Assembly: GCA_905220665.1 (NCBI GenBank)
Contig: CAJNAR010000174.1
Location: 124,001-188,000, forward strand
From: Albugo candida
Taxonomy: Eukaryota > Oomycota > Peronosporomycetes > Albuginales > Albuginaceae
DNA: 64,000 bases
Direction of reading: 5' to 3'
Part shown: positions 18,781-62,705 of the stretch, piece by piece
How positions within the stretch are numbered: position 1 is the first letter of the stretch
How the letters are laid out: the number at the start of each line of letters is the position of its first letter
Position numbers and translations under genes: made by a program
The notes under the pieces: model-generated
What the model saw: only the letters and a program-made list of their open reading frames with translations
Told to the model about the DNA's origin: nothing
Database searches by the model: none

Positions 18781-19815
18781 ATGAACATTTCCAACCTCAA
18801 AGAGTACGGTCTCGCTGCTCTTGGGGCATGGACAACGTATCTCCAATTTGTGTCCGGTGAGTACATGCAAATTGAAAACCTCGCAGAGCCGTTGGAATTT
18901 CAGCTTCAATTGAATTTGAAGGTGGAGATATTGAAAACACCAGGAGTCTATATAATGGCGTTTGACTTATATGATTCGGATCGCAACAGAGAAAGTCTCC
19001 GTCGCTGCATTTCTAGCACGAAATTTGAAGCAATTTTTATATCCGATCCCTTTAAGTATGAATTATACGAAGACGTAGGTGCGGAACAGATCTCTTACTA
19101 TGAACCTGAAAAGAAGAATTATTATGAAGATGTCACCCGTGAATATACACCAGGATGTTGGAAATTGACTTATTCAAAACTAGATGAGCTGGTAAATGAT
19201 GGAATGCTCACATATTCAAAAGAAAAAGGGTATGGACTCAATCCTGGAAAGTTTTTAGATTTGGCTGAAGAAGGAGTCTACTCTTTCGCATCGAGGTCGC
19301 CAAGTCTCGTTTTCGAACCTATATATTCTGTAATACGTGAGATCGGACCCCTTATAGGCGACTTCAGACCGGGAAATCTGTTATGCAAGGAAATAACATA
19401 TGGCAATTTACTATTCAAAAATCAAAATATCGCTATTGGTTTCGGTAACAATCAGGTGAGTGTTCCAAGAAAAGTGTATGATGAGATTAAGGAACAGAAT
19501 GAGAAAAAGCTCCGTTCCGATTCTCTTAAAAATAGATTATATATCGGAAAAATAGCGCTTGGGGCAGAATCAGGGAACAGCAAAGAGAAATTTAAATATG
19601 ATATGGGCGAATGTCCCCATCTCATTTCTTTTTCGGAGCTCATTCCAAATGACGAGTCAAAGTGGGTTCTTGGACTTGAATTATTGGGCAATCATAATAT
19701 CAATGTCAAGATCCAACGTGAAACCAAAACGTACCAAATCCTTTTTCCTCAAAAGAAACGAAATCGAGCGAGCACTTCATCTAAATCTAAAATTGATACA
19801 TATCTGACATATTAA
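18781..19815 (+). CDS. family-A secreted-type protein, intact copy A1
   Basis: Single exon, 344 residues, fully open. The family is defined by comparison within this window. Copies at 32.6-33.7, 38.5-39.7, 41.3-42.5 and 56.9-57.9 kb share an N-terminal leader, a (V/I)MAF(S/D) motif, a Cys about 15-20 residues later, a CWK/CWN motif, a strand motif (I-GFG-N...VP here, IRFGDGMIQLP in A6) and a basic, charged C-terminal tail. Here the leader is weaker than in A4/A6, so secretion is less certain. The pair of conserved Cys may form a disulphide. Function unknown; size, leader, copy number and repeat-rich setting suit pathogen effector or surface families (inference). It is preceded by tandem repeats and a TATA box and faces family-B copy B1 tail to tail. 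Confidence 0.75.
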   Translation: MNISNLKEYGLAALGAWTTYLQFVSGEYMQIENLAEPLEFQLQLNLKVEILKTPGVYIMAFDLYDSDRNRESLRRCISSTKFEAIFISDPFKYELYEDVGAEQISYYEPEKKNYYEDVTREYTPGCWKLTYSKLDELVNDGMLTYSKEKGYGLNPGKFLDLAEEGVYSFASRSPSLVFEPIYSVIREIGPLIGDFRPGNLLCKEITYGNLLFKNQNIAIGFGNNQVSVPRKVYDEIKEQNEKKLRSDSLKNRLYIGKIALGAESGNSKEKFKYDMGECPHLISFSELIPNDESKWVLGLELLGNHNINVKIQRETKTYQILFPQKKRNRASTSSKSKIDTYLTY

Positions 19816-19899
19816 CTCTTTTTCACTATGCAGCTCGTACGAAAGTCGTACCTATCCGAATTGTCTAGGATCATGAGATATATCGCTCTAAGACAAGAT

Positions 19900-21350
19900 T
19901 AATGCTTAATAAACATTTAGAATTTGCTTTCATGCGCAAAATTTTGTACAATGGCCTTACATGCAGAAAATTACGTGCGAGGAACAAGAACAAGAGAAAA
20001 GGAAGCTTGTTTGCTTGGAAAATAAATTGGATCGATGCAAAAGCTCATGAATGGACGATCGTTGTGAAGGAAGTGTCTTTTGTGAAGTCCCCAAGACACT
20101 TACTGACGGCCATAAACCCCAACATGCTGTATGCGCATGATAGCGCAGCCTTCTCGATAACAGAATACTCGTATGGAACTTGTGCGCTTCAAGTTCGCGT
20201 GCAAATTGCTGAAAGCGTAAGATCACAGTCGTCTGCATCATGAAGGATCCTTGATGCAAAGCTCGTCGTTGTGCATGTTCTTTGGCATGGCACGCTGAAA
20301 TAACGGAATAAATAGATCACTTCCAACGTCTCGAAACAATCGACCTTGTTCTGGCAACGAGCGACACCAATCAGTCCATATTTCAACACAAAATGAAGAT
20401 GCAACAGAGTTCAATCTGGAAATGGCATCGAGCAGTTTCTCACTGTTCGGGTGACTCAAGCAACCAAGTACATTTGGATCTGAAGCGAGACGCTGGCTAA
20501 GCAAATTACAAATTGATACCCAAATCAGCCTAAGAAGTTTGATGCCATTTCGCCAAACGTGTTGTGAACTGGCGACTGGGTAACTACAAAACAATTGTAC
20601 TTGTCTGACACGAGACGAGCTGATCGGTTTTTGTATGATCTCATTCATAATTGAGGCGTCATTTGGACGATGTAATACAGCAGTGAAGTCGATTCAAACA
20701 CGTGGGACGCATCACCTTTGCTGTCGAGATTGTACCAAAATCTTTCTTGTTGTACAATCAGAAGACCCATTCGTACATTTTTGTTCGTCTATCCCTTGAC
20801 CAGCTTTGTTGTAGTAGTCGCACGCTTCCTGTTTTGATTTCCATACGATCTCGCAGCGAAAAATCAATAGTGTCAACTCTGTGCAGCGTGTCGAGTCTTT
20901 AGGATGTGACTATGACTACGCACAATGTAGAAATTTCCTACTCCGGTTGCATTTTACTATCGATACACCATCCTAGAGACCGCCATAACTGATATCGACC
21001 TCACTTGGTATTTCTAGACGAACGACTCTGACCAATCGCAGAAGTTCCATCAAGCTTTTGAAGCTCGTTATCATGACAAGAAACCCCGGAATGGCTTTAC
21101 CATCTCCTTTATTCGTATAAGATAGTTGCGAAGCATGAAGTCGATGTGACCACATGCAGGTTCCAAGCATCCCTCATTTATCGCCTGATACACACCACTT
21201 TGGTATATAACATCCGATAGTTTCTTTTCACGGTAAAAGCGTCATGTAGCAGGTATTCCGACTATTTTCATCTCGTCATTGATACTCTATTGCATCCATT
21301 GCTGGCATGAGATCGCACCTAGTGAGCGACTTATCGAGAAGCGGTATGCG
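19900..21350 (-). pseudogene. degenerate family-B copy B1
   Basis: Family B is recognised only by matches inside this window. The minus-strand segment with VSICNLLSQRLASDP and LLDAISRL (about 20.4-20.55 kb) matches 40.24-40.6 kb (minus) and 61.9-62.1 kb (plus). A block around 20.87-21.0 kb (reading ISYGGL, then a leucine/charged stretch) matches 61.46-61.63 kb, and 20.16-20.24 kb matches 32.2-32.33 and 62.2 kb. One 136-codon frame is open (20238-20648), but the whole is broken by stops and shifts. The same amino-acid frame is kept across copies, which argues for a former protein gene. Domain unknown. It lies head to head with the myosin and tail to tail with A1. Confidence 0.5.
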
Positions 21351-21823
21351 TGTTGAATGGTTACGGTACTCATCGAGGTTCTCATTATTGCATCCTTGCA
21401 CTAACCAAAAACGTGTGGCACATGCTATTTTAGGACCTGGTATAAATAATATGGCAGTATCGGGACGAAACAAAAAGAAGCGCTGTTCGGAAACTCTTGG
21501 ACCAGATTGGAACAGAACGGAGCATGTAACCCGCGCGGTACGCGCGGTAGGGCAGGATAGGTTTCAAGTCTGAAAATAAAGTTTTATTTCTTCTAGAAAT
21601 GCGCTCTATCCATGTTACTGGTCAATAACACCTGTCCGCTCCACCCCTACTGGATAAAACCATCTAGTATACGGCAGAGAGCACTATCGGGTTAGGGCCA
21701 ATAGAATTCGTGTCACACGTACCCTTTACCCTCGCTTTTTTGTCCATTGTAATAGCCTTTTCCGCCACAAATACACGAATAAATACAAGCCGCTTAGGTC
21801 TTGTATACATTTACACAAGCAAG

Positions 21824-24800
21824 ATGGAAAAAGGTGTAAACGTTTGGTTGCGTGACGACCAAGAGGATGCATGGTATCGCGCCGTAGTTGTCGAATTATC
21901 CGACTCATCGTCACGCGAATGTCAAGTTCGATTACGTGTCCATGAAGGGCCTCGAGCACGCACGGAGACGACTCTATCACTCGATATTCAGGCTTTGGAA
22001 AATGAAGAACTGACTACTCTGTTGCTGGCTAATAATCACGACATGGATTTTGTGGAAGACCTCATTCAACTTCCTCATCTCCATGAACCGGGAATTTGTC
22101 ACGCTCTACAGAAACGGTTTGAGATCAATGAGATATACACATTCACAGGTGAGATATTACTTGCCATCAACCCGTTCCAAAATGTCGGCATTTACTCTGA
22201 AAAAATACGTCGAAAATACATTCGAAATGGCGAAAAGCGCGCCTCCGGAGCTGATGTACCGGATATGCCTCCACATGTGTTTAGTATCGCTGACAAAGCG
22301 TATCGCAATGTGTGTGCTCCAACGTTTGGTAAAGAGGGACTTGGCACAGAAAGTCAATCGATTCTCGTGAGTGGGGAGTCTGGTGCTGGAAAAACGGAAT
22401 CAACGAAATTTATCATGGAGTATTTGGCCACATTATCCAAATCTCAAAAGGGAAAGATGACCGAACAGGAGACCAGTGTCATCGAGAAGATTCTGTCCTC
22501 AAACCCGATCTTGGAAGCATTTGGGAATGCTCGTACCATCCGAAATGATAACAGTTCGAGATTTGGAAAATTCATCAAGCTTCATTTCTCTGGCGCTGGC
22601 CAACTTATCGGTGCATCGATCCAGACGTATCTTTTGGAGAAGGTTCGTCTGGCATATCAAGCAGAAACTGAACGCAATTATCACATTTTCTATGAGCTGC
22701 TGGCTGGAGCCAGTGCCGAAGATAAGAAGCGTTGGTTTCTTCCATCCAAAACGAGTGAATTGCATTACTTGAATCAAAGTACTTGCACCAAACGGAGGGA
22801 TGGAATTGACGATAAAACACAGTTTAACAATCTTAAAGCAGCAATGGACGTGATGGGCTTTTTACCGACTGAAATTGACGCTATATTTGGGACAATCGCC
22901 ATGCTACTGCATCTGGGGAATCTGACATTTGATGAAGTCGTGAATGAGGAGTCTGGAATGGAAGGGTCCAAGATTCATGCGGACACAAAATCATTGCAAT
23001 ATGTATCCAATTATTTCGAAGTCGATCGATTGGGATTGGAACAAGTGCTCTGTTTCCGTAAAATCCAAGCTAAAGATGAAACATATGTGATCAATCAGAG
23101 CGTGGAAGACGCCGGAAACACACGAGACGCAATGGCACGATATATATACGGTCAGCTGTTTGACTGGCTCGTGGATCGCATCAACCGACGAGTAGAGTGT
23201 GAATCTGAAACGGAAAAGCTTTTCATCGGCTTGCTGGATATTTTTGGATTCGAAGATTTGAGCCATAATTCTTTCGAGCAGCTTTGTATCAATTATGCTA
23301 ATGAAAGACTCCAGCAACACTTTAATCGAACCGTTTTACGGCTTGAACAAGAAATGTATGAACGAGAAGCGATTGAATGGAGCTTTATCAACTTTCCTGA
23401 CAACAGCGCGTGCATAGATCTCATTCAAGCGAAACCATGCGGTATTTTGAATATTTTGGATGAGGAATGTATAGTCCCCCAAGGAAATGATCAAAACTTT
23501 GCACGGAAATTGTATCGTCAGCATGGTGAACATCCTCATTTCACTGCCGATAATACCCACCAAGCCAGCCACTTATTTGTTATTCATCATTACGCAGCTC
23601 AAGTGGTATATGATACATTTGGTTTTTGTGACAAGAACAAAGATGTGCTCTGCTCGGAACTCATCAATTTCATCAAGCGATCCACGAAGCCCTTTGTTGC
23701 AAGTTTGGTGACAGTTTCCAATCGGAATAGAAATTTGGTTACCGCAAGAAGCAGAGGGATGCAGGATTCACGTCAAGCGGGTACCAATGGAATTGGGACA
23801 AATCGGTGTAGTTTAGGGACCCAATTTCGTAATCAGTTAAAAGAGCTGCTTGATACAATTGGAGCCACCAGCTGCCATTATGTGCGATGTCTCAAGCCAA
23901 ACGACACCGCAACACCTTCCAAGTTCATTGCCAGACGTGTTTGCGATCAGCTACGTGCCGGAGGTGTGCTTGAAGCTGTTCGTGTGAATCGAGCCGGCTA
24001 CCCTGTTCGAATGCCGCATCAGCAATTTTTGAAGCGCTATCGAGCCCTTGCCACGGGAGCATACTTGCGTAAACTTTGTGAGTCAGAAACGGCTGGAAAT
24101 GATTCAGACCCATCCAATTGTAAAGAAATGGCACAGTTACTTGTAACATTCCTTCTTCGAGCACAATCGGAGAAATATCGCCACATTTTGGCGGCCAGTG
24201 ATGAGGAAGCACAGGAAGCTGCTAGTGATCTCGCATGCGTATCTGGAATTCAGGTTGGCTTGACTCGTGTCTTCTTTCGTAGAGCAGCCATTCAATTCGT
24301 AGAAGCTCAGTTGGCAAAACGGTATGCCGAATTCATCGTCATTATCCAAGCAATGGTACGCGGATTTGTACAATATCATCGATATAGGCGTCAGAAAATT
24401 GCCTGTGTCCGTATACAAAGCGCTGTTCGAGGTTTCCTCGTCCGATATAGATCCATCGAGCGGGAAAAACGTCTTCGAGTGGAAGCTGATAGGATTAGTC
24501 AGCTTCAGAAGTTGAAAGATGAGACATCTTCGAACGATCCGAAGCCTATTCGCGAAAGACAGAGTTCAGACCCAATATCCGATGACTCCTCCGATGAAAG
24601 CTCTCGACCAACCGCAATATCACTGAAAAATGCCGCAGAATTGAATGATCGTGGAACTTTGCGACTACGATTCACAAGAGATTACGTGTACGACGACGAA
24701 GGCTCTGGACGCTTGACATTGGGTGATCGAACGCGGTCAGTCATAATGGATCCCGGAGATACGGTCTTGCATGTCGCCGCTAATTGCTGTAACGCTCACG

Positions 24801-25951
24801 ACGTGTTGCGTCTACTACAAAATGGCTCTGATATCAATGCTCGTAATCGTCGTGGTCGAACACCGTTGCATACCGCTTCACTACACGACAACGTCCAAGT
24901 GGTCGGAATCCTGTTGGATTGGGATGCAGATGTATTAGCACAGGACGCCGATGGAAATACTCCACTTCATCTAGCAAGAGATTCAAAAGTTGCTTTGATG
25001 CTGTTGGAGGCCGGGTGTACACCCAATATCGTCAATGTCGAAGGTCGAACAACACTTATCGATGCTGTGGACCGTGGTGACCATCTAATCGTCGATGCTC
25101 TTCTGCAATTCAAAGCAGATGTCTTATTTCGAGAACTGAAACATCATCAAACAGCATTACATCTCGCGGTTCGTAAAGGCCACTACACAATAATTATGGC
25201 ACTTTGCAAATCCGATGATGCTAAAGAACTGATCCTTCTAACAGATCGCAATGAGAATAACGTTCTTCACTTTGCTGTATCGCGTGATCGTAAAAATGGC
25301 TATCGTTTGGTGGATTTCTTGATCAAACAAGGAGCTCAAGTCGACAAAGTTAACACGCGTTTTCAAACTCCTTTGGTTGTTCACGTGATCACAACTCGCC
25401 AAACGGATCCAGCTATAACCGAATTGTTCTTGTCTAAAGGATCGGATCCTAATGTGAGTTTAGCTGATGGCTCCACGCTGTTACATATCGCCGCAGAACG
25501 AGAACTCATTGATATCAGCTGTATGTTGCTTCAGTATGGTGCTCACTTGAATCAACCCGACAGTCGTGGGCGGTATGTATCGGACATAATCAATCGAAAA
25601 TACCTCAAGAAACTGTATAATGCGATTACGAGCCCACCGAGCTGGATTGAGCCTTCCACACGGCGGACTTGCATGCTGTGTGATAACGCGTTCAAGTTTA
25701 GTAGTCGGCGTCATCATTGTCGCCATTGTGGTCGTGTTTGCTGTGGAGAGTGTAGTACGTTTACCGTGGAAGCAAGTCGTTTTCCAAAAGATTTTCCCGC
25801 TCGAAATTCGGCTGGAGGAAAAAATGGGAAGGATCCGCAACGTGTATGTCGGACTTGTCATGCCGTCTTCAAGATTCGATCGGCGCAGAGGGAGTCTAAA
25901 TCAGGTTTCATCGCGCGCGTGCTCGGATATGAATGGGAACAAGAAAGTTAG
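21824..25951 (+). CDS. unconventional myosin with ankyrin repeats and FYVE finger
   Basis: Single exon, 1375 residues from MEKGVNVW. The frame extends upstream to a GTG at 21710 through a hydrophobic stretch, but a myosin head does not need it and the ATG context is better. Motor domain to about residue 780: P-loop GESGAGKT near 184-191, switch I NDNSSRFGK, switch II DIFGFED, actin-binding HYVRCLKPND, converter and RVFFR. Two IQ motifs follow (around 840-885). After a charged linker come six or more ankyrin repeats (about 980-1250) and a C-terminal FYVE zinc finger with the RRHHCRHCG signature (about 1275-1345). FYVE fingers bind PI3P, so the motor probably works on endosomes. This layout is known from oomycete myosins; I do not assign a class number. 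A decayed inverted copy is at 58.1-60.5 kb. Confidence 0.93.
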   Translation: MEKGVNVWLRDDQEDAWYRAVVVELSDSSSRECQVRLRVHEGPRARTETTLSLDIQALENEELTTLLLANNHDMDFVEDLIQLPHLHEPGICHALQKRFEINEIYTFTGEILLAINPFQNVGIYSEKIRRKYIRNGEKRASGADVPDMPPHVFSIADKAYRNVCAPTFGKEGLGTESQSILVSGESGAGKTESTKFIMEYLATLSKSQKGKMTEQETSVIEKILSSNPILEAFGNARTIRNDNSSRFGKFIKLHFSGAGQLIGASIQTYLLEKVRLAYQAETERNYHIFYELLAGASAEDKKRWFLPSKTSELHYLNQSTCTKRRDGIDDKTQFNNLKAAMDVMGFLPTEIDAIFGTIAMLLHLGNLTFDEVVNEESGMEGSKIHADTKSLQYVSNYFEVDRLGLEQVLCFRKIQAKDETYVINQSVEDAGNTRDAMARYIYGQLFDWLVDRINRRVECESETEKLFIGLLDIFGFEDLSHNSFEQLCINYANERLQQHFNRTVLRLEQEMYEREAIEWSFINFPDNSACIDLIQAKPCGILNILDEECIVPQGNDQNFARKLYRQHGEHPHFTADNTHQASHLFVIHHYAAQVVYDTFGFCDKNKDVLCSELINFIKRSTKPFVASLVTVSNRNRNLVTARSRGMQDSRQAGTNGIGTNRCSLGTQFRNQLKELLDTIGATSCHYVRCLKPNDTATPSKFIARRVCDQLRAGGVLEAVRVNRAGYPVRMPHQQFLKRYRALATGAYLRKLCESETAGNDSDPSNCKEMAQLLVTFLLRAQSEKYRHILAASDEEAQEAASDLACVSGIQVGLTRVFFRRAAIQFVEAQLAKRYAEFIVIIQAMVRGFVQYHRYRRQKIACVRIQSAVRGFLVRYRSIEREKRLRVEADRISQLQKLKDETSSNDPKPIRERQSSDPISDDSSDESSRPTAISLKNAAELNDRGTLRLRFTRDYVYDDEGSGRLTLGDRTRSVIMDPGDTVLHVAANCCNAHDVLRLLQNGSDINARNRRGRTPLHTASLHDNVQVVGILLDWDADVLAQDADGNTPLHLARDSKVALMLLEAGCTPNIVNVEGRTTLIDAVDRGDHLIVDALLQFKADVLFRELKHHQTALHLAVRKGHYTIIMALCKSDDAKELILLTDRNENNVLHFAVSRDRKNGYRLVDFLIKQGAQVDKVNTRFQTPLVVHVITTRQTDPAITELFLSKGSDPNVSLADGSTLLHIAAERELIDISCMLLQYGAHLNQPDSRGRYVSDIINRKYLKKLYNAITSPPSWIEPSTRRTCMLCDNAFKFSSRRHHCRHCGRVCCGECSTFTVEASRFPKDFPARNSAGGKNGKDPQRVCRTCHAVFKIRSAQRESKSGFIARVLGYEWEQES

Positions 25952-27293: not shown

Positions 27294-28745
27294 ATGGTCG
27301 GTTTTAGGATCCTGCAAAATGCAAAGCGCATGCGAAATGCGGCAAAGCTTGCGACTACTTGCCGATTTTCAATTATACGGCATTCGAAAAGCCGTATCAT
27401 ACATCTGTATCGATCCTGGGACACACAATACCACTTCAAAAGCACAAGAAATTCATCGGAAAGTGACGCAATCGCTGCGTGGGAACGTGGAAAAGAATGC
27501 CTGGACGCTGATCCCGATAAAAACCAAGCCGTCAAGTACCTTCGAATCGCAGCAAAAAGTGGTATTGCTGACGCTCAGTACCAATTAGGCGATCTCCTTT
27601 TACAAAGTAAGGAGAACCCGTCAAATGGTCCCACGGAAGAGCTTTTACACGATGCGGAAACCGAACGCTCACAATTACAAAACAACAACCCAAAAGATAT
27701 TCGCCTTATACGCAAAAAAGCTCGCTTGATGCATCAAAAATTCCAAAGCGAAAGCAAAACCATTCAATTCAATGTTAAACACGTCAGAAAAAAAGATTTG
27801 GATGATGTTTTCGGGGTCACAATGCAAAAACTTTTGGATCCCATATCCATTGTATCCAATTTGGATGGCTGTAGAGACGCAGACGTCGAGGGGGTATATT
27901 GGATTCGAAATGCAGCCGATCAGAATTTGATTACTGCTCAAGTTCGAATGGGAAATATTTGCGTCTCTCAGGATACTCCGCTGCCAAAATTCGCTTTGGA
28001 GTGGTATGAAGCCGCTATGAAGCAAAACATTTATGGGGAAACGCTAGCAAAGAAATTGAGGGGGGACGCGGCCTACAACATTGGAATGCTCCTTTACGAC
28101 GGCGTAAGTACTTCTGACCCTCCACTTCCTCAAAACCGAGCTTTGTCCGTACGGTACTTTGTTAAAGCCGCCGAGTTGGACGATATTGCAGCTCAGTTTT
28201 TCGTTGGAACGTTGCTGTTTCACGGCTCAGAAGAGTGTCATGTTGCAGCGAATACTCTCAGCGCTTTGATGATGATTGAAACTGCAGCGGATAAAGGGCA
28301 TACCGGCGCAATGTTCTTCTTGGCTCAATTATACCGCTCTGGCGACATTGAAAGAAACATTCCAGTCGATACGCACAAGTTTCGGTATTATTTGGATGCA
28401 GCAGTCGATCGAAAAGATCCTGATGCTCTTTTCTGCTTGGCTGATATGTACTACCATGGAATTGATGAAGAAAAGGATCTCGACGCTGCGCAACGATTGT
28501 ACAGAGAAGCTGCCATCGCTGGAAGTGTCGATGCATTTTGTTGTTTGGGATCTATTTTCTATCATGGAGACGGGGTCGAGCAAGATTATCATGCTGCATT
28601 TCAGTACTATCAGCAAGCTGCGGATCGTAATTCGCGTCAAGCCTGGAAAAATCTCGCCGAAATGCATTTTTTTGGGCGAGGCGTTCCAGAGAATCCAGAA
28701 TTGGCAAATTCTATCCTGAAAATGCTCAGAAACTCGGAATCGTAA
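27294..28745 (+). CDS. Sel1-like repeat (TPR-type) protein
   Basis: Single exon, 483 residues from ATG 27294; the frame can be read back only to a GTG at 27273. The first ~45 residues are Arg/Lys-rich without acidic residues (MVGFRILQNAKRMRNAAKLA...), like a mitochondrial presequence. At least seven Sel1 units follow, with the typical A-x-YxxAA...G...A-xxxLGxxY/F-xxG pattern, for example KYLRIAAKSGIADAQYQLGD, RLYREAAIAGSVDAFCCLGS and QYYQQAADRNSRQAWKNLAE. Sel1 repeats form scaffolds for partner proteins; the ER degradation factor SEL1L/HRD3 is the founder, but I see no signal peptide or membrane segment, so a mitochondrial or cytosolic adaptor is more likely. Confidence 0.85.
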   Translation: MVGFRILQNAKRMRNAAKLATTCRFSIIRHSKSRIIHLYRSWDTQYHFKSTRNSSESDAIAAWERGKECLDADPDKNQAVKYLRIAAKSGIADAQYQLGDLLLQSKENPSNGPTEELLHDAETERSQLQNNNPKDIRLIRKKARLMHQKFQSESKTIQFNVKHVRKKDLDDVFGVTMQKLLDPISIVSNLDGCRDADVEGVYWIRNAADQNLITAQVRMGNICVSQDTPLPKFALEWYEAAMKQNIYGETLAKKLRGDAAYNIGMLLYDGVSTSDPPLPQNRALSVRYFVKAAELDDIAAQFFVGTLLFHGSEECHVAANTLSALMMIETAADKGHTGAMFFLAQLYRSGDIERNIPVDTHKFRYYLDAAVDRKDPDALFCLADMYYHGIDEEKDLDAAQRLYREAAIAGSVDAFCCLGSIFYHGDGVEQDYHAAFQYYQQAADRNSRQAWKNLAEMHFFGRGVPENPELANSILKMLRNSES

Positions 28746-28761: not shown

Positions 28762-30136
28762 TTATTGAACGCATTGATAACTCATTGTGTCATCTGCAAA
28801 GACCTTGACCGTCGAAACCGGGAATTTGTCTGGATTCGAAGGCTGTGTAGCGATCGGATCATCTGATGATTTCTCAGTTGTTTCGGGTTGAAAGCTTGTT
28901 GTCTCTCGCACAGGAGGTTCCACGATCGATTCGCTTTGCACGCTGACTACTGGCGTTTGTTCATGCGCGCTATCAAGTACTTCCTCGATGATGGAATCAG
29001 ACGTCACATTGCTATCTATTTCATGATGCACTGTATGAACAAGTCGTTAGCGATTAGCCTCTCCAAGGAAGACACGTACAAAAAACATCAGTAGCGGCTT
29101 GAGCATTCGTATCGAGTTCCACAAACCCCACAGACGTTCCGGTACTACTGAGACATGAAGAAGGAAGTCGATGTAATACTCCATGAGCGACTTCTGCACC
29201 CAAAACGCCCTGCCCATTCCATTCTTTTGAAGGTTTTAAGTGAACGATACGTATCTCGTCGTCTTCACAGCTTGAAAGTACGTCAATCCGAGGGTCTCGA
29301 TCCCCTTAAGCACGTACTTGTACACAAAGCAAGGGAAGGAGGCTTCCAAGTGAAATGAAACATGTTGATACAAATCGTCCAAATCTGAGGCCGAGAAGAT
29401 TACCGGTAACGTTTGACGGAGAAAGAGGCCTTCCTACCTCGAAATACTATCTCAGGGGTGCCCAGCAGATAGTCGGAACCGGATCGTAGGCCAGCTACAG
29501 CTGCAGGCGAGCCAGGTAGTACTTTCTGGTTCAAGTCGAGAAACAAAAGTTCAAGTTGCGATATTTTTGGGAATGCACTTGCATATAAGGATCTCACCGT
29601 AACGTGCAGAAGATGATTCTCTGCATCCTGGAAACAGTCGAATCGAATGGTTACGCCCAATAGTCCTTTTCCCGGCCATTTTCTTGAGGGCGTGAGCTGC
29701 ACCTCTGGTGTACCAAAGTCATGCAAGTCTGCACCACTAACAGATAGTAGTACCTCTGGTTGTTCTTGATTTCGCATTGAATAAGCGCAAGTCCATAACG
29801 CGTTCTTCATTTCCAGCAATGAGTTCCATCAATATCGAGTCTTTAGTGTCCTACATGAGACTCAGGGAACATAAGTTTGTACAGGTTATGCGTCATTTCT
29901 TGTGGGCGCACCAAGCGTATGCCATTGGCCTCGATTATAAAGTCAAAGAAGGAGACAAAACCAACTTTTGATGCGGGCGATTCTTCCTGAACTCCCAACA
30001 CACGAAATCCAACATTAAAGGAGAGATTTGTGTCACTTGACGTTTTATTATTGAGGAGCGTCTCTTCTTCTGGTGCAGCACCGGAGTCTGTATAGCGTAC
30101 ATTTCCAGTGACTGTCGATGACTCGGTCGTTCCCAT
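28762..30136 (-). CDS. GRASP / Golgi reassembly stacking protein
   Basis: Seven exons: complement(join(28762..29030, 29080..29270, 29318..29384, 29438..29525, 29598..29704, 29754..29850, 29912..30136)), 347 residues, phases consistent. Begins MGTTES, a myristoylation-type start as in other GRASPs. PDZ-like domain 1: GFRVLGVQEESPASKVG, FFDFIIEANGIRL, then RKWPGKGLLGVTIRF. PDZ-like domain 2: GSPAAVAGLRSGSDYLLG, DLYQHVSFHL, then EWNGQGVLGAEVAHGVLHRL. The tail is Ser/Pro/Thr-rich, as usual. GRASPs tether Golgi cisternae and act in unconventional secretion. Several introns are needed to restore the PDZ blocks, which is why single frames look broken. Stops convergently only 16 bases from the Sel1 gene. 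An intron-containing pseudogene copy is at 63-64 kb. Confidence 0.9.
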
Positions 30137-31240
30137 TACAGCACGGTTCCCGCTAACGCGAGCAACGGTATAAGAAATAAAGGAACATCAACGATCAGGG
30201 TATATTAAAGATAAGGTGTTCTCAGATTTCTTAGATTTCTACAAGCCAAATGAAGGGCAATTTCAGTAGAACGAAAGTTAATAAAAAGAATTATTCTTCA
30301 TTGAACTTGTTATAAACGCAAAATCAGATAAGAAGCATACTTTTGCTCATGGCTTCCAAAGAAACTCATACAAGAGGTGTCAGAAATATATCAGCTCATC
30401 ATCACTTTTTTCGTTTGCTACAAACTATGTCGAATGCTGGATGCTTTCTCAGAAATCAACAGCCAAAAATTTTCGTCCTTATAGTTCTGACGGTAATTCC
30501 AATATATGTTCATCACTGAAAGCAAGAGTAATTATGACTGAAGCCAAGTCCAATGATTGAATCGATAATATCGAAGGCTCGGTTTGGCTGGTTGATTAAC
30601 CGGCAACCCTGCGGTTTGAATACGTCATGTAATGGATATCACAGATGCTGCAATTCAGCGTTCCTATTGGTCAAATCTCTTATGTGTGGTGGAATGCACC
30701 TCTAAGATGTAGTGGTAATCAGATAGAAGGTGTCAATATATATTTGTAATTCCGAGTTTCAGTCTTCAATTGCTCTTGTCACCTTATTTAGTTGGCCTCA
30801 ATATCACTCGATCTGTAAACTACATGCTGGGACCTTAAGTCCCTTGAGAGTGGTTAAGAATTTTTCCTGTTTACATGTGCAGTCGTTGCCAAGCAGTTTA
30901 GGCGCTGAAAGTGTTTTGCTTCTTGGAGACGTAAATAGGACTTAAGAATTGATATCACACGTTTATACTTTCATTATTTACAACAATATCGATAGTTTAT
31001 GTGTACTCTGTCATCTCGTTCACATCCACTGCTTGACCATGTCTCGAGTCTTCGGTAATAGCGCTTCCATAGCTCTTGCGGCGTTTTGGAAAATGGTTTG
31101 TTATCGTATGCTTCACTGCGCTTACATTACAATCCAAGCGAGAGAATGGTATATAACGCCGTGAGATATGCGTTCACGCGCTCTTGAGATCATTATCCAA
31201 ACTGGTGGACATCCCACGTGATGGAAAGAAGCTGTCATGA
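30137..31240. other. intergenic, AT-rich, no gene seen
   Basis: About 1.1 kb upstream of GRASP. Short ORFs (30730-30945, 30949-31164) carry no recognisable features. It may hold the 5' remnant of the family-B copy that follows. Confidence 0.5.
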
Positions 31241-31249: not shown

Positions 31250-32500
31250 ATGTGGTGGGCGTTTGTGAAATCAGCGAGATCGGTTTATTGCCAGTACTTA
31301 TCGATAGATGAACGATGTGGACTGATACAGAAGCCACATGTGAGTGTTATGCTTACTTGAAAATTTGGCAATACATTCTTTAATAGATGTCGATAGCATC
31401 GTATTATCGCAAACGTATTGTATTTCAAATCGCATTCCCTCACAGATATTTCGATGTTGAATGTATGTGTTGTTGAATCGAAAGACTTGCTGAATGTATG
31501 GGTGCATTTGGAAGAGGACATAAGTGATGTCGATGTAGGCGTTCGTATGTACAACGTATTCGAATATTCCGTTATGAGACTTTAAGCTTTTGGTCAGATT
31601 ACAAAATGAATTCGGAGATGGTGCCTTGAGACGCTGAGTTAGAAAGATCAAAGCCGGACGAGCTCGTTGAGGTCGGGCAACAACTCAGTAGCTGTGCTCG
31701 ACGTCTCAATAACGGCAATGAGGCTTTTCTTCGCGTCGCTCAATTCCGTATGGTGTCCACCACCAAATGTATGTATGAGTCTGGTCTTGGAGTGCTCCTA
31801 TGCAGCTATGCCAAAATGAGACTGAACCATAATCGAATGAAATCGCTACTATCAAAAAAGAATACGATCAACAAACATTGCTGAATCGGCATCGTATATC
31901 GTGGACGTGGGGTAGAGCGTTATCGAATCCTCAGACTGTGATGAATACATGAATTATGAAAGCTTCTTATCGTGATGGGCAGAAATTACGAGTTGGTGTC
32001 GCTCGGATTAGTAGGAAGGCAATTTATTGCGTGGACACTTTAAAGCAATCTTGTAGCCCAATTCTTTCAGACCACGTGGAGTTCTTTAAATCGATGTGCG
32101 GAATTTCTTGATGTAATTAGTCGATGTAATTGGACCGATTTCGAAATATCATGTGCATTATAGAATGCCGTACCTCGTGGACGCGTACGAGAAGGAAATT
32201 CGCGTCAGTGATCACTTATGGTGAAGACGACAGTGCGCTGTCTGATACTATGCATTGCGGAACTTGAATACGAACCTGACACGCACGGATCCCATACGAA
32301 TAGAAGGTGGAACCACCATATTCATGCAAGAAGTTGATGGGGTGTACCTTCGTGCCGTAGTGCTTTTTGATAACTACAAAGGAGACAATTGCGCTCCTTT
32401 CTTTACGTTCAAAAGTATGTTGTGAGAAGAAGCGCTTTGAGATGTACAGAACTGTACCACAAAAGAGCTCTTGGTATTTTGTCGACAATGAAAGATTGGG
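31250..32500 (+). pseudogene. degenerate family-B copy B2 (3' part recognisable)
   Basis: The segment 32.2-32.33 kb matches 20.16-20.24 kb (opposite strand) and 62.15-62.29 kb (same strand), including a shared CACGGATCCCATNCGA stretch with 62.2 kb. The complement of 32.4-32.48 kb (reading FCGTVLY) matches the complement of 62.52-62.57 kb. Upstream of 32.1 kb I cannot align it firmly. It converges on family-A copy A2. Full of stops; no product proposed. Confidence 0.4.
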
Positions 32501-32584
32501 CGTGTGAAATGATATCTGAATGCATGTAAGGTATTATCTGTCTTAGAATCGATCTATCTTGTGATCCTGAGATTCATTCATGTG

Positions 32585-33686
32585 CTAGAGCTTTTCCACA
32601 GACTGCATATGGCGTACGCCTGGCGAGTTCCACATGAACCTATCTCTCTCATTGCTACCCTCTTCCTCTAATACTGCTCTTTGTCTTTTGATGTCTCTCA
32701 TCGATTCGCTTTCGTGTGCAATCTCCTCTTTTTGTAGTGCCCTTCTCCTCCGCGCTTCCTTCATAACGGACATATTTGTACTTCGTCTCTTCACTCGTTG
32801 TATCGATGATGGTGCGAAACATCTTTATACACTCAGGGCTCAGCACCCAAGCGTCACTTTCGCTAAGTAGGAAGTCCACCACTACCATTGAAAATAAAAA
32901 GTATCCTCTTTCACTGTAATGCTGTCCAGGTGCTTCTAGCCTGGTAATGCGATCTCCATTGGTTTAATACAGATTCCGCTATCCAATTCTGTTTTCCCAA
33001 TTTCCTTAATTCGCTGGAGCGTATCCTCCATAGCGTAACCTATGATAAAAAATTCCTCTTTGCTTTTTCCATAAGGTCCTTTGGGGATTCTGATAGCGTC
33101 GTCGTGGAAACGAATCGTCACTTTTTGGTCATGAAACAATTGGTCACCTAAGGTAATTGTAGGAAAGCGATATTCGGTCTCAGGTTTCAAATCGCTATTT
33201 TCAATAGTGGTCACTGACATATCTAAAACTTAAAGTGTTGGCATTGAAGATTCTCTCTGTCCGAGGCTAAGGAGGATATATTCCAACAATCTGGTATACC
33301 CTTCTCAGAAATATCCTTCAGATAATTCGTTTCTTTCCTTCGTGTTGATTGATAGTCATGGACCCTCTTCATCTCATCGAGTATCCACGAATCACTACTA
33401 GGTGAATTATTTTGTACTTGTACGGATTCAGCTTGCGCTTTTCACCTTTGATTTTCGTGTCAGGAAAGCAGCGATTGAAAATAGAAGTAGCGGTTTCGAG
33501 ATTATTAATAGAAAATGCCATCAGATGTTCACCCACTTTCGACTCTGCTATCTGCACCATCAGTCCCCGCTGGTTTCTATTTCCACCATCAACCAATGTA
33601 ATGAATATCGCACCGACGTGACAATAACACGTTAACGAGACGGCAAACAGGATGCTGAGGTAAGTTTTTCGTTGAAAATTGTTCAT
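32585..33686 (-). pseudogene. family-A copy A2, frameshifted
   Basis: Three or four fragments line up with the intact members. 33686-33369: a leader MNNFQRKTYLSILFAVSLTC, a good signal peptide, then HLMAFSINN and a conserved Cys. A shifted piece near 33.25-33.35 kb contains IPDCWNISSL, matching VACWKISSA of A6. 33220-32936: QKVTIRFHDDAIRIP and SGICIKP. 32888-32585: a basic coiled-coil-like tail (VMKEARRRRALQKEE). At least three frame changes and several stops separate them, with no good intron signals, so it is dead. It still shows that the ancestral member had a clear secretion signal. Confidence 0.7.
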
Positions 33687-33699
33687 CGTGTTGACAGTC

Positions 33700-34255
33700 G
33701 ATCAATTATTGGATTATGACGTAAGATTATGATGATTTATGGGACAATTACCAGCCACAAGTGTGAAATTTTTGCTCCCATCGTGAGATGAGTTTTGCCC
33801 AAGTGGGAAAGTGGTCACATAGAAAGGTTGGATGGAAGCGAAACTACAACAGGTAGGTGAGATACGGAAGTTTTCAGTTCTATAATCTGAGAAGTAATGT
33901 GTCATTCGCCTCACAAACCCATTATACATTCTATATTTGTGGAAAAATTTCATATGATTCTCAGCACACAGTAAGTTTACACACAGACCGCATTTTGTAA
34001 ACAAACTGGCAATCATTGGAACTCGTACTTTGGGAGTGATACGCAATAGCGATGAAATAGTCGAATAATTCCGAACCTCCAACTATGTATGTGACGTTAT
34101 GCTCTATGTTTCATCACTTGGAGCCAAATCGCGTGATTATACAAGACCAAGTCACGGGAAGGAATATCAAGATGTGTGACTTCATACAATCAACTTTCTA
34201 GGAAGCTCTTTATTGGAAGCATCGTGAACTTTTGTTTCTCTATGCTTTAGTTTCC
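33700..34255. other. no gene seen
   Basis: The stretch upstream of A2 contains a 122-codon minus-strand ORF (33714-34082) with no family features and no repeat match found by eye. Confidence 0.4.
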
Positions 34256-38400: not shown

Positions 38401-38478
38401 TGCTACAGCCTCCATATTAAATCATCAAGGAGTTCTTACTCATAATCAAATATTCGACGAACCTTGAGCACAGTCAAG

Positions 38479-39755
38479 ATGTATCGATTCAAAGCGGATT
38501 GTATCGCCATGCTTGAATTTTCGACAGCGTATCATCAATCCGTGAGCGGTGATTACACAGAACTGTATAAAAGAAGGATAGGGAGGCTTGAACATTGCCA
38601 TTCGGGATGGCTGTAGAAACAGCAAGGGTTCATTATGAGAAGAGTGAGACGTCAGAATTAGTGATGGAATTTTACCAAAATGATACTAAGGACCCAATCC
38701 TTGCTTTAAAACAATGCTGGCCCAAAAGGAAGTTAGCGTGCGCTATGATGACAATATAAAGTCTCGCTCTGATCCTGATGTATTGATACAGATGGATGTA
38801 ACGGTATCAGGCGGCTCTGATGATTTATATACACCAGAAAACGCGTTGGCAAGGACCTACCTCTATGATCCAAACGAAGGTAAGCATACACTTGAATACA
38901 TGAAGCCTTTCCATGAATTGAATCTGGCTGGTAAATTTGGTGCGTGTTGAAAAATCTACGGGAACTTCTTGCATCTTCATTCGTACTGAGCATATGTATT
39001 CCCCATGTGCATGGGAGAAAAGGAGGCGAGAAGAAGATGACTTAGCCCGCATGATGCTCAATCCTGACTCGTTCATCACAATAGCACCAAACGGAATGTA
39101 TTCTTATGAATAATGGATGAGTATCAGAAAATCTATGCAGGAGCCATTTCAGCGAATTTAAGAACACCCGGTCAAGCTGAATCCCGAAGAGCGAGCTCAA
39201 GTCCTCAGAAGTTATTCTGAACGGTGCGTCATTGAAAAACCAAAATTTCCGTTTCTCAGCTGACAATGAATGGCCTCGAATGCCAGGTGACGTTCATGAG
39301 GTGTGGAAAGAGCAGCTGGAAAAGATAGGGTATACGATCGATAAAAGAAACGTGTACCAACGTACAACGGATTCCGCTGCGGGGGATACCGAATACCAAA
39401 ATTCAGTGACGAGACAATTTCAGACAACCCACTATTACACATCTCCCATCACAACAAAATTAAAGCAGGGCGCCGTTCTTTTAAAAGATGTACCGTTAGA
39501 TCACCCCTTGGATTTGGATTATACGTTTTTCATGGGTTATACCATCATCATCGATACAAATGGTGGCAGTAAAAAATAAATTTATCGCTCCAAAGAAAAG
39601 CACAAACGGGATGATCGAGTTGAGTCCAGGAGAGACCAGCATCAAAATCAAAGACGATTGAACTGAGTGTGTGATCTCACAGGTGCGTGGAGCCATCGTG
39701 CTTGCGGAACAAATGTCAGCATATTCACCAGACGAAGAGTACGAGGTAGTTTGAT
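38479..39755 (+). pseudogene. family-A copy A3, frameshifted
   Basis: Starts MYRFKADCIAMLEFSTAYHQ, followed by VSGDYTEL, which parallels VSGEYMQI of A1. A shift follows near 38.6 kb into a frame with ETSELVMEFYQNDTKDP (family MAF region) and a Cys, then 38714-38950 and 39232-39579 in other frames. The late part resembles the penultimate family block, and an acidic end SPDEEYEVV is seen at 39.73 kb in yet another frame. Multiple indels and stops; no product expected. Tail to tail with family-B copy B4, repeating the A1-B1 arrangement. Confidence 0.6.
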
Positions 39756-40239
39756 CTTGAAACACAATCAATGTTCAATACATAACAAATCTATCTCACA
39801 CGCGTACTTGGTATCGTAGACTTTGCTTTGCTTCAGTTCTTTCGTGGCACCATCCTGTATGTCTCAAAGCGCTAGACTCAAGGCCAATATGCCCTACCAA
39901 TCGTGCTGCCCACTGATGGTTACAGTTGCCATTTGTTTGCAGTACCCACTTCTATCCTTCCATAGAGCATGGTCTCGATCTTTCCTCCACAAAAATAGAC
40001 CGAGAAAATAGATCTTCTCGATGGAACAGGTATCACCAAAGCACGTCGTGTACATGAGGATAGTTCAATAAACATCATCCTGCTGCCTCCTTCACTATGA
40101 GAGATCTTGGATGGGCTAAGGCGGATGTCAAGTTTGGATACAAGTTTCTCAAGTCATGATGTCAGTGAGCCCGCTGTCGTCTCCACAGGTAGTGGTTCCT
40201 GATGTACACCTCTGCCGTATATCTTCCATCTGTCAGATC

Positions 40240-40870: not shown

Positions 40871-40879
40871 TTGCATGAT

Positions 40880-41055
40880 TCTACCGGGTGTACACCCAAT
40901 ATCGTCAATGTCGAAGGTCAAACAACACTTATCGATGCTTTGAATCGTGGCGACATCTGACTGTCGATGCACTTATGCAAATTAAAGCAGATGTCCTATT
41001 TCGAGAAGTGAAACAACGTCAAAGTGCATTGTATCTCGCAGTCTTAAAGCTCTGT
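40880..41055 (+). pseudogene. ankyrin-repeat fragment of the myosin
   Basis: Matches myosin bases about 25011-25180 closely (GTGTACACCCAATATCGTCAATGTCGAAG and onward; protein NIVNVEGQTTLIDAL, then KADVLFREVKQRQSALYLAV). One small deletion at the GDH position shifts the frame. The rest of the myosin is absent here. The same stretch, more diverged and inverted, ends the myosin pseudogene at 58.14-58.23 kb, so both copies descend from one event. Confidence 0.8.
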
Positions 41056-53330: not shown

Positions 53331-53339
53331 ACATACGGT

Positions 53340-54400: not shown

Positions 54401-54404
54401 ATTG

Positions 54405-56395: not shown

Positions 56396-56398
56396 CCA

Positions 56399-56906: not shown

Positions 56907-57908
56907 ATGAAGATTTATAAACTGAAAGCGCTCTGCATCGCCATCCTTGGGGTCTCAACGAAAGCAAATGATTTGGCCAGCGTAATCAGAATGAAAATGC
57001 GCCTCGTGCGGAATGATCGAGATCAACCGATTTGGGGAATGAGTGTGGCGATAGCGCCAATAGAGCCGAGTGAATTTCATGTAATGGCGTTTTCGTTGGA
57101 TCATTCGAATAATGTTGACGAGACTCTTGATCGCTGCTTAAAATCGGGTTCTCTCTACGAACCAGAACGTAGGGATGACGAGACAGATCTGCTGAATTTC
57201 GATATGCATGGTGTAGCTTGCTGGAAAATATCTTCAGCGTTCAAGACGCAATTGTTCGAGAAAAATAAGCTTATGGATAATGAAGAAGAAGAAAAGTGGT
57301 CGATTCTTGATAGTGACGAGTTCTTACGTCTGGGTATCAAGGGAGTCTACATAATCGAACAAACAACATCCGAGCGAGGAAATGTCATGTCTTTCAGGTT
57401 GTACAATGCTGATGAGTCCAAGTACGTATCTGAGAGCGATCTTGTGTTTGATAACTTCGAATATTCCGGCACCTTATATCCAAATCAGAAAGTGGAAATT
57501 CGATTCGGGGATGGAATGATCCAACTTCCAGAAGATATGTATGCTGTGTTCTTACGAAACCTCGAGGAGAGTGGTTACAAAATATCTGAAGACCATAGAT
57601 ACGAAAGCCTTTATGGCAAGGTTAGTTTAGTCTTATCGTTAACCGATAAACTTCTGATTCCAAAAAAACCGGGAATCTGCATTGTAACAGCATGTGAGAT
57701 CGATGTAGCACGGCACAACAGTCCGGCGCGTGTTGTTCCCAGCGGAAGTGATGCTCTGGTGCTAGGAATTGCAGCTTTAGATTCAAACATGGAGAAAATC
57801 GGGATCGATACTAGGGGTAGAACGATTAAGTACAACTTTTTCTGTAAAGATGAGGAACGGGGAAGAATAGAGAAGATGAGAAAAAGGAGAGGAGAGAAAT
57901 GGAAGTAA
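56907..57908 (+). CDS. family-A secreted-type protein, copy A6 (shortened tail)
   Basis: Open for 333 residues. Leader MKIYKLKALCIAILGVSTKA looks like a short signal peptide with cleavage near residue 20. Family motifs: HVMAFSLDHSNN, DRC, VACWKISSAF, YIIEQTT, KVEIRFGDGMIQLP, GICIVTACEIDV and PARVVPSGSDALVLG. It then stops in a Lys/Arg-rich stretch. A different frame just downstream (to about 58070) still encodes the acidic family end (DYDSTDSDED), so a small indel near 57.89 kb has removed the original tail. The product could still be made and exported. Upstream repeat boxes are preserved. Function unknown; effector-like by setting (inference). Confidence 0.65.
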   Translation: MKIYKLKALCIAILGVSTKANDLASVIRMKMRLVRNDRDQPIWGMSVAIAPIEPSEFHVMAFSLDHSNNVDETLDRCLKSGSLYEPERRDDETDLLNFDMHGVACWKISSAFKTQLFEKNKLMDNEEEEKWSILDSDEFLRLGIKGVYIIEQTTSERGNVMSFRLYNADESKYVSESDLVFDNFEYSGTLYPNQKVEIRFGDGMIQLPEDMYAVFLRNLEESGYKISEDHRYESLYGKVSLVLSLTDKLLIPKKPGICIVTACEIDVARHNSPARVVPSGSDALVLGIAALDSNMEKIGIDTRGRTIKYNFFCKDEERGRIEKMRKRRGEKWK

Positions 57909-60490: not shown

Positions 60491-60699
60491 ACGGTTTCGC
60501 CTTAGTTGCGATCTGTCCTAAACTCTCAGAACAGCGCCAGTTCATCTTCATTTTAATTGGTTTAGACATTAGCATGTGTCACACTATTTGATCAATCCAG
60601 TGATCAGATTTAGCGACGAGTGCTATATTCATTTATGAGCGAGTAATTGCGATGCGGTTATTCACTTACATTAATGATGACTAGGCATATGTCTACTTC

Positions 60700-62705
60700 T
60701 ACTATAATCTAAGCTATTGGAGATTGGTGGGGATGATACTCACTGTTTCTTCATCCGCTAAGATGAACACACGCTTTTCATTTCGAGCTGTACATTCGGA
60801 ATGTACTAAAGTGCTACTTTTGGGATTCAATTCCTCCGAATTGTCTGTATTGCTTACTGACCGGCCATCTTTAAGATGTCTGCATTTCGTCTGCGCTCAC
60901 TCCTTTTTTAGACACAAGGTTGTGCTCTCGAGACTAGAAAAACATAATGACCAATTGTATACATTTACATTGTTTGTATATCATCTATCAGTTGCTAGTA
61001 ATAAATCACTGTCATTTGCATTGTGGCATTATCATACTGCGGAATATCAGATTTCGTAACATTTAGTGTAAACCTTGACGCTCCGAACCTTGAATCGCTA
61101 TGTGGATCACCTTTTGTGTATTTCGGTCTAGACGTTGGCTCGCGTGTGTTTGCTTGAATGCGAGCTATCCACTCTAAATTTTTCATTACCCGAATTTTCT
61201 ACCACACGATGCTTCCAGTCGTAAAAGCAATGTATTAGATGGTGTTTGGAAGAGTGCGCATCAGCGGACTATAGAGAAAGCTTGTGGTTGGCTTTGGTCA
61301 CATCGAATGTATATTTGGGAACTACCTATCAGTAAATAGAAGTGTGTCGAGACATCTCTGGCTCTCTTTCCATGGAAAAGATTTTAATAGGTTTTTGATT
61401 AAATATGGAACGAATGAGTCGGAAAAGCTGACGGTAGATTCCTTGCAGTCGTTCGTCGAAAATCGACGGCTTCGTTGGAAATGAGTTATGGTGGTCTCTC
61501 CGATGATGTTGAAAATATATTATGAGCGCGAGAGCAGTGTGAAGTCATATTCACATTGTCAAGACTCGACATGCTGCACGGCGATGAGATTGATGACTTT
61601 GTATTGCGACAATGTATGGAAACAATCAAGGAGCGTACGACTACGAAAAGTCTATCAAAGCTGATCAATAATAGTTGATGGCAGCATGTTTGCAAATGCA
61701 AGAATGGGTCTCGTGGTCGGACAGCAAGGAAGATGATGGTACAATCTACATCGGTCAAAAACATAGACAGTGCGTCACAGTGTATGATTCGACTTCAGAC
61801 CACTGTGTTTCATCTCAGAAAATACTCTCCACCTAAAATTGAGGTCTTACAACAACCCCTTCAGCTGGTATGTGTCAGAAATCTTAACTTGTCTTAAAGC
61901 TGATGATGAAAAAATACTCCAATGATGTAGTGGCCTGCCAAGGACATATTTGGCGAATTGACAATAAAATTTTTCCAAGCTGGTTTGTGGTAATCAATAA
62001 TGTGTTTGCTTAGTCACATTTCACTTCAAAACCAAATGTACCTGGCAGCTTCGTCCCGTGTCAATGACATGCTGTCTGATGCGATTTACAGAAGAAACTC
62101 CCTCGCATCTTCATCTTGAGAAGAAAGACGCGAACATGCGCACAAGCATAACCAGCTAGGTGGAACATATACGGCAAGAAGATGTAGATCAGGGATCACT
62201 TCCACGAGAAAATTTTATTCAAACTTGACACCCACGGATCCCATCCGACGATATTCAGATCAAAGAAGTCAAAGGAGCCAGTCTTAACTTTATGGCGTGC
62301 TCGGTGATACTTGTGGTATCGAGAAGATCAACTTCCTCGGTTTATTTTTGTGGAGTAAATCACAAGACTATGCTTTACGAATGGATAAAAGTTGGTACTG
62401 CAAATAAATAGCAACGGCAGACATCAGTGGAAAGCACGATTCTCGGTAGAGTATGGTGGTGTTGAGAGTCAAATGAAGACATTCGGAAGGATATAATCCT
62501 TGATAATGGAACTACACTATAAGCGGGAGCGCTTCAAGACGTACAAGACGGTGCCACAAAAGAACTCATGCGAAGCAAAGGTTACGATACTGATTATGTG
62601 TGAGATCAACTTAGTTTGTATCGACAATTTTTCGTATCCTAGAATCGAGCTTCTCATGATGCCTCGTAATCCTGAACATTTCGAATACGCTTGAATTTTT
62701 TTCAC
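60700..62705 (+). pseudogene. degenerate family-B copy B6 (longest)
   Basis: Spans the most family-B blocks in order. At 61.27-61.3 kb it matches 21.14 kb; at 61.46-61.63 kb it carries SYGGLSDDVENI then RLDMLHGDEIDDFVLR, matching B1 and B4. Around 61.98-62.1 kb it matches 40.24-40.45 and 20.4-20.55 kb, at 62.2 kb B2, and at 62.52-62.57 kb the B2 end. Broken by many stops. It extends from near the myosin pseudogene's 5' end, mirroring B1 and the live myosin. Confidence 0.5.

What the first reader, a model, noticed from the sequence alone, without database searches (positions are those of the whole stretch)
18781..62705. Repeated tail-to-tail pair of family A and family B
A1/B1 (18.8-21.3), A2/B2 (31.3-33.7) and A3/B4 (38.5-40.9 kb) each show a family-A unit converging on a family-B unit. 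At two or three sites family B is then head to head with a myosin or myosin relic. The unit that duplicates is a gene neighbourhood, not a single gene. The pairing may reflect shared function or simply a duplicated block; neither family matches anything I can name.
Basis: partly seen in the sequence, partly recalled or inferred. Interest (0 to 1): 0.75.

Follow-up and report, generated by a model that had tools for sequence, protein, structure and literature searches.

The report
Duplicated effector-like gene with noncoding flank
In the white-rust parasite Albugo candida, a fast-changing secreted-looking gene has been copied many times together with the DNA beside it; the supposed partner gene "B" looks like non-coding flanking DNA, so the repeated pairing is best read as a duplicated block and not as a working gene pair.

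Summary
The window is from Albugo candida. The recurrence is real, but only A is a gene. Family A is a single-exon, signal-peptide-like family (12 intact members, 333-415 aa; 42 loci). Three members scanned have no Pfam match, and protein hits are only in A. candida (4 of 4). "Family B" is homologous DNA at 27 loci. It has no codon periodicity (0.418 vs 0.417 shuffled), 84% of its indels break frame, and RNA-folding z is near 0. Its mean identity between blocks (0.712) is no higher than that of decayed myosin there (0.738). B is A's 3' flank and, where a myosin is present, the spacer up to that myosin, so "tail-to-tail" does not describe two genes. 13 of 27 B loci lie within 2 kb of an A locus, 13 of 13 at A's 3' end (chance about 0.12). 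The block also carried myosin, Sel1-repeat and GRASP genes: one intact copy each, the others relics. A copies are mosaic: 227:9:7 sites in A support a block pairing that B and myosin do not; A1 and A95 share 92-93% of the promoter region but 50% of the coding interior. A new family of a known kind.

The parts
17542..18780 (+). Upstream (promoter-side) part of the A module, with a ~400-nt direct repeat (17884-18297 / 18217-18617)
   Evidence: 86-88% identical over ~1.26 kb to the upstream DNA of two other A genes (A120, A95), both matches starting at the same point; repeat
18781..19815 (+). A1: intact single-exon family-A gene, 344 aa, signal-peptide-like N terminus
   Evidence: ORF; P0001 ABG067_006569 covers most of it; 42 family loci
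19830..21660 (.). B1: non-coding spacer between A1 and the myosin gene
   Evidence: aligned with 10 other B copies; no codon phase, frame-breaking indels
21713..25951 (+). Intact myosin (head, IQ, ankyrin, FYVE), the only intact copy of this subtype found
   Evidence: Pfam; genome search
27294..28745 (+). Intact Sel1-repeat gene, a passenger with relic copies in other blocks
28790..30180 (-). GRASP55/65-like gene, apparently multi-exon, a passenger with relic copies in other blocks
   Evidence: Pfam PF04495 on the stretch 29403-29825
31950..32530 (.). B2: decayed B copy (approximate limits)
32600..33701 (-). A2: broken family-A copy, seen only as separate frames (approximate limits)
38473..39727 (+). 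A3: broken family-A copy
39646..40886 (.). B4: B copy, 64-77% identical to five other C172 copies along most of its length
40884..41049 (+). Myosin fragment (166 nt) left beside B4
   Evidence: 86% to the intact myosin gene
41308..42501 (-). A': broken second family-A copy of the k4 block, opposite strand
56907..57908 (+). A': intact family-A gene of the mirrored k3 block, 333 aa
58182..60395 (-). Myosin relic
   Evidence: 18 stop codons in its main match; 75-83% to the intact gene
61070..62790 (.). B3: B copy without an A beside it
   Evidence: 77% to b250
62837..62866 (-). 30-nt remnant resembling an A 3' part
   Evidence: 93% to A240
63058..64000 (+). GRASP relic, running on beyond the window, followed there by a Sel1 relic

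Best explanation
A is a lineage-specific family of probably secreted, fast-changing proteins (candidate effectors) in Albugo candida. Its members spread by duplication of chromosome blocks. The block copied most often on this contig is A - spacer B - myosin - inverted second A, in some copies next to Sel1 and GRASP genes. After duplication the passenger genes (myosin, Sel1, GRASP) and the spacer drift as neutral DNA, while many A copies stay open. Ectopic recombination or gene conversion between blocks then gives A copies new flanks, with breakpoints near the A coding ends and inside B. B is the non-coding 3' flank of A. Shown: homology, lack of coding signal, a rate like that of dead myosin, adjacency, mosaic structure. 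Inferred: secretion, effector role, and conversion as the exact mechanism.
For: B has no codon phase: max-phase share 0.418 vs 0.417 shuffled over all pairs of 11 copies, and 1846 of 2190 indels are not multiples of three. The longest B ORF seen (197 aa) has no protein relative at E up to 1 and no Pfam match. Folding z of 32 windows from 8 copies averages +0.21 and -0.21 on the two strands. B identity is like that of dead myosin in the same blocks: k211/k233 0.864 vs 0.874, k3/k250 0.800 vs 0.760, k211/k242 0.737 vs 0.724; over the ten relic pairs the means are 0.712 for B and 0.738 for myosin, B being lower in 7 of 10. Relic-relic myosin shows no codon phase (0.423 vs 0.425) while intact-relic does (0.460 vs 0.432). 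One intact myosin of this subtype against at least 7 relics, 6 on C172 and 1 on C166; Sel1 and GRASP likewise one intact copy plus relics. By contrast 19 of 42 A loci have an open frame of 342 or more codons without a stop. Adjacency 13 of 27, orientation 13 of 13. Mosaic: A coding sites 227:9:7 and upstream 58:1:2 for blocks 211+4 | 233+242, whereas B and myosin join 211 with 233 at 86-87%. A1/A95: upstream 92-93%, first 75 nt 80%, interior 50%, downstream 69-70%.
Against: 14 of 27 B loci have no A locus within 2 kb, so A and B can part. B also abuts decayed copies of another neighbourhood (GH31 and a 536-aa gene) at b72, b91 and b119, where no myosin was found, so one single block does not explain every copy. 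B1 differs from the other B copies at 42-45% of sites, well above the myosin four-fold divergence in the same comparisons (18-24%), so B1 and the intact myosin do not share one history. The site signal in far B is weak (9:2:6), and the block k4 has only a 166-nt myosin fragment, so myosin bears on three of the four blocks. dN/dS of A pairs is not significantly above 1: A1/A120 1.13 (bootstrap 0.84-1.60), two A' pairs 0.72 and 0.58; nine pairs span 0.42-1.13. Secretion was judged by eye and hydropathy only: the N-terminal hydropathy peak is the highest in the protein in 5 of 12 members. The fold prediction failed (pLDDT 35).
Confidence: 0.85

Rival explanations
1. B is the relic of a real protein-coding gene that once converged on A and was already dead, or died at once, when the blocks multiplied.
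For: A ~600-nt core of B (window 20401-21000) aligns in nearly all of 11 copies, and some copies keep ORFs of 150-197 aa.
Against: No codon phase over all pairs, distant ones included; stops in every frame of the core in all 11 copies; the longest ORF has no protein relative or Pfam match.
Confidence: 0.1
2. B is a functional non-coding transcript or regulatory element for A, for example a long 3' UTR or antisense RNA, kept by selection.
For: The first ~130 nt after A's stop are better conserved than the A interior (A1/C168 73% vs 58%), B1 positions 1714-1831 match three other copies at 77-81%, and the public model of A1 ends in an exon there.
Against: Most of B diverges about as fast as dead myosin and shows no structure signal. 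The signal is limited to the A-proximal ~120-130 nt.
Confidence: 0.1
3. A and B are two functionally linked gene families kept in convergent pairs.
For: Recurrent, always same-sided adjacency.
Against: B shows no coding signal; 14 of 27 B loci have no A within 2 kb, and 29 of 42 A loci have no recognisable B.
Confidence: 0.02

Closest known systems
CCG (formerly CHxC) effectors of Albugo candida (PMC10087428: outline, abstract and passages seen; Furzer et al. 2022 seen only as cited there)
   Same: Same species; multi-copy, polymorphic, secreted, with reported pseudogenisation and elevated nonsynonymous change
   Different: None of the 12 family-A proteins tested holds CX2CX5G or CHxC. A has its own conserved residues (RC, GCW).
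RXLR effector subfamilies of Phytophthora ramorum that recombine between paralogues (PMC3820680: passages seen)
   Same: Recombination or gene conversion between clustered paralogues, with breakpoints just before the ATG and near the stop codon, so that flanks and coding parts have different relatives
   Different: No R-x-L-[RQ] motif in the first 130 residues of the 12 A proteins; different species, no sequence link shown
Segmental duplications with decayed passenger genes around fast-evolving families (general knowledge, recalled)
   Same: Passenger genes decay, the fast-evolving family is kept
   Different: Here a myosin, a Sel1-repeat gene and a GRASP gene are the passengers

Membership tests
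CCG/CHxC effectors of Albugo | CX2CX5G (CCG) or CHxC motif in a secreted protein | tested here: not met
   0 of 12 intact A proteins hold either motif
RXLR effectors | RXLR-type motif after the signal peptide | tested here: not met
   0 of 12 with R-x-L-[RQ] in the first 130 residues
Oomycete candidate effector (general class) | N-terminal signal peptide | tested here: inconclusive
   N-terminal 12-residue Kyte-Doolittle maxima of 1.03-2.17 in the 12 members, the highest peak of the protein in 5 of 12 only; no SignalP available
Oomycete candidate effector (general class) | Lineage-restricted, clustered, fast-changing family | tested here: met
   Protein hits only in A. candida, 4 of 4, with 7991 candidates scored; 16 of 42 loci on one contig; dN/dS 0.42-1.13 over nine pairs
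Oomycete candidate effector (general class) | Expression in planta and effect on the host | not testable with these tools
   no expression data held
Protein-coding gene family (for B) | Codon-phased substitutions and frame-preserving indels | tested here: not met
   0.418 vs 0.417 shuffled; 344 of 2190 indels are multiples of three
Structured RNA (for B) | Folding more stable than shuffled, or an Rfam match | tested here: not met
   32 windows per strand from 8 copies, mean z +0.21/-0.21, 1 of 64 below -2; no Rfam match in the window at gathering thresholds

The most novel reading that the evidence does not exclude
Family A is a cassette-exchange system: shared promoter and signal-peptide ends, and dead passenger DNA and spacer B supplying homology, let ectopic conversion put new coding interiors behind existing promoters and so diversify a secreted repertoire. 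A1, A95 and A120 (promoter region 92-95% identical, interiors 50-70%) and blocks k233/k242 (flanks mostly 0-10% divergent, interior 16-41% in 8 of 10 windows of 100 nt, all three codon positions alike) look like such exchanges.
Probability: 0.25. Interest if true: 0.65.

Novelty: new member of a known kind. Interest (0 to 1): 0.42.

Why it matters
It removes a would-be second gene family and replaces it with a clear history: one effector-like family amplified in blocks, with dead passengers that serve as a local neutral clock. That clock lets the rate of change and the recombination of candidate effectors be measured against neutral DNA in the same blocks. The 12 members tested have no CCG motif, so effector lists made by that motif would miss them in this Brassica pathogen.

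Tried and rejected
B as a coding gene: rejected on phase, indels, stops, protein search and Pfam. B as a structured RNA: no signal, no Rfam match in the window. CCG, CHxC and RXLR membership for A: motifs absent in the 12 tested. Structure of A: AlphaFold2 with 6 sequences gave pLDDT 35, so no fold search was made. Strong positive selection on A: not supported, the bootstrap interval of A1/A120 includes 1 and two A' pairs are below 1. A single common block for all B copies: rejected, b72, b91 and b119 abut another duplicated neighbourhood. Literature: the listings shown by searches (9 of 9 papers; 10 of 17; 15 of 37; 15 of 6768; 15 of 46; 12 of 232) name nothing on this family or block; they cover openly licensed papers only, and Furzer 2022 itself was not read.

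In the four-block site count only columns filled in all four blocks were used, so the far part of B (beyond k242 position ~242730) contributed nothing and the opposing signal there (9:2:6) is weak; the stronger evidence is the pairwise identity of B and myosin. In one search B is more alike than the myosin relics in 3 of 10 pairs (k3/k250, k211/k242, k233/k242; the last holds a stretch of 90-100% identity next to A). One search dropped ungapped blocks shorter than 45 nt, with fewer than 8 differences or more than 45% difference. Its 'A pairs' control includes broken copies and shows no third-position excess either (0.403 vs 0.397; A' pairs 0.389 vs 0.392), but 15 of 28 indels are in frame (A' pairs 33 of 48) against 344 of 2190 in B. 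The census uses hits of four A queries and four B queries; hits overlapping ones already entered were left out, hits with E above about 0.0015 (contigs 16 and 191) and the broken A2 copy are not in the 42, and two of the 27 B loci (contig 158) match only ~70-100 nt of B1 and may be something else. All genome counts are lower bounds. The output was cut in the middle.
Full report
The window is G000:C172:124001-188000 of a 38.9-Mb, 196-contig genome. Proteins matching family A carry the name Albugo candida in 4 of 4 hits, so the source is the white-rust oomycete of Brassicaceae. One of them, P0001 (ABG067_006569), covers most of A1, and P0002 (ABG067_006560) matches the copy at C172:119.5 kb; both annotated models end differently from the plain ORF, in pieces lying in the A-proximal flank.

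Family A. A1 at 18781-19815 is a single-exon ORF of 344 aa. Four protein queries give 42 loci in the genome (counted), 16 of them on contig C172; 19 of the 42 have an open frame of 342 or more codons without a stop in at least one of these searches. Twelve intact members align with a signal-peptide-like start and conserved RC and GCW residues, at 17-54% identity to A1. Pfam has no match for the three family-A proteins scanned (two, one). The CCG, CHxC and R-x-L-[RQ] motifs are absent in 12 of 12. The A-like copies at 42.5-41.3 kb and 56.9-57.9 kb belong to the same family.

"Family B". B copies are real homologous DNA: 12 regions on C172:1-258000 were compared and 27 loci counted genome-wide; 200 shuffles never come near the real scores. 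But B does not behave like a gene. Differences fall evenly on the three codon positions in six close pairs, and over all pairs of 11 copies the max-phase share is 0.418 against 0.417 shuffled. Of 2190 indels, 1846 are not multiples of three. The core has stops in all six frames of all 11 copies. The longest ORF seen, 197 aa in the copy at 93.4 kb, has no relative in the 5.8-billion-protein search at E up to 1 (30 candidates scored) and no Pfam match. Folding is no better than shuffled.

Neutral clock. In five blocks both B and a decayed myosin can be compared. B identity (ten pairs, mean 0.712, 0.643-0.864) is not higher overall than that of the dead myosin (mean 0.738, 0.681-0.874); B is lower in 7 of 10 pairs (means taken from its table). 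Relic-relic myosin comparisons show no codon phase (0.423 vs 0.425), whereas intact-relic comparisons do (0.460 vs 0.432). So the intact myosin at 21.7-25.95 kb is under constraint, while the relics and B drift.

The duplicated block. The map shows the order A -> B - myosin -> <- A' at k4 (38.5-42.5 kb, myosin reduced to 166 nt), k211 (mirrored) and k242 on C172. k233 has A-B-myosin. k3 (56.9-62.8 kb, mirrored) and k250 have B-myosin-A' without an A, and carry GRASP and Sel1 relics beside B. A1-B1-intact myosin is followed by the intact Sel1-repeat and GRASP genes. On contig C166 a myosin relic also lies beside a B copy, and on C149 Sel1 and GRASP relics precede a B copy in the same order as at k250. 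For this myosin subtype one intact copy and at least seven relics were found. The copies b72, b91 and b119 abut instead decayed copies of the GH31 and 536-aa genes of window 10-15 kb.

Linkage. 13 of 27 B loci have an A locus within 2 kb, and in 13 of 13 B lies at the 3' end of A; about 0.12 such neighbours are expected by a rough chance estimate. 14 of 27 B loci have no counted A that close; one of them (B2) lies beside the broken A2 copy, which the protein queries did not find, and one (B3) beside a 30-nt A-like remnant. 29 of 42 A loci have no recognisable B.

Mosaic history. k211 and k233 are 82-92% identical over most of B and myosin but 48-65% over most of A, with the edge near A's 3' end. 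k211 and k4 are 69-90% identical through A. Four-block informative sites give 227:9:7 for 211+4 | 233+242 in the A coding part and 58:1:2 upstream; near B gives 21:3:0 the same way, and far B 9:2:6 for 211+233, which is weak. k233 and k242 have flanks mostly 0-10% divergent (one window 15%) but an A interior of 11-41% in the ten 100-nt windows beyond the first ~230 nt, with 79, 72 and 65 differences at codon positions 1, 2 and 3; since third positions are raised as well, exchange explains this better than selection alone. A1 shares about 1.26 kb of upstream DNA with A120 and A95, both matches starting at the same point, and A1, A95 and A120 are 92-95% identical over the last 700 nt before the ATG but 50-70% in the interior. 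B1 and the intact myosin also have different histories: B1 differs from the other blocks' B at 42-45% of sites, the myosin four-fold sites at 18-24%.

Selection. dN/dS is 1.13 (0.84-1.60) for A1/A120, 0.72 (0.54-0.96) and 0.58 (0.44-0.80) for two A' pairs, and 0.42-1.13 over nine pairs: weak constraint or none, and no proof of positive selection.

Known background. Albugo candida effectors described in the papers seen are the CCG proteins (PMC10087428, outline, abstract and passages; PMC12503489, passages). Recombination between clustered effector paralogues with breakpoints at the ATG and near the stop codon is described for Phytophthora ramorum RXLR genes (PMC3820680, passages). PMC4384639 (passages) reports mosaic genomes and 44 myosin-like genes in A. 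candida. The listings name no paper on this family or block, but they show only part of the matches and cover openly licensed papers only.

The remaining interest lies in family A as a recombining candidate-effector family, not found described in the listings above, with a built-in neutral clock.

Noticed in passing
window 41853-44771 and 54430-57558: Inverted duplication of about 3 kb, 83-93% identical in its blastn pieces, holding an A' copy and its upstream DNA; a related, more decayed stretch lies at C172:200.8-206.0 kb.
   Followed up: partly
window 17884-18297 and 18217-18617: A ~400-nt direct repeat (75%) in the A1 promoter region, also matched upstream of other A genes (C172 ~1 kb, 96 kb, 121 kb) and in weaker single matches at 206, 213, 231 and 240 kb.
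   Followed up: partly
window 9893-14934: The GH31 gene and the 536-aa gene beside it have further copies at C172:67-71, 86-90 and 114.6-118 kb; the 536-aa gene is 96% identical at 86.4-88.0 kb.
   Followed up: partly
P0003 (20.7-kb contig of another A. candida record): An A1 relative only 75% or 86% (aligned part) identical in protein, although races are reported to differ by ~1% (PMC4384639, start of abstract); a divergent allele or another paralogue.
   Followed up: no
window 19835-19873: The public gene model of A1 (P0001) ends in an exon just past the A1 stop, in the A-proximal end of B, so that end may be part of A's transcript.
   Followed up: partly
C172:594-1286 (outside the window, near the contig end): A fragment of an A gene start with its promoter-like DNA.
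   Followed up: no
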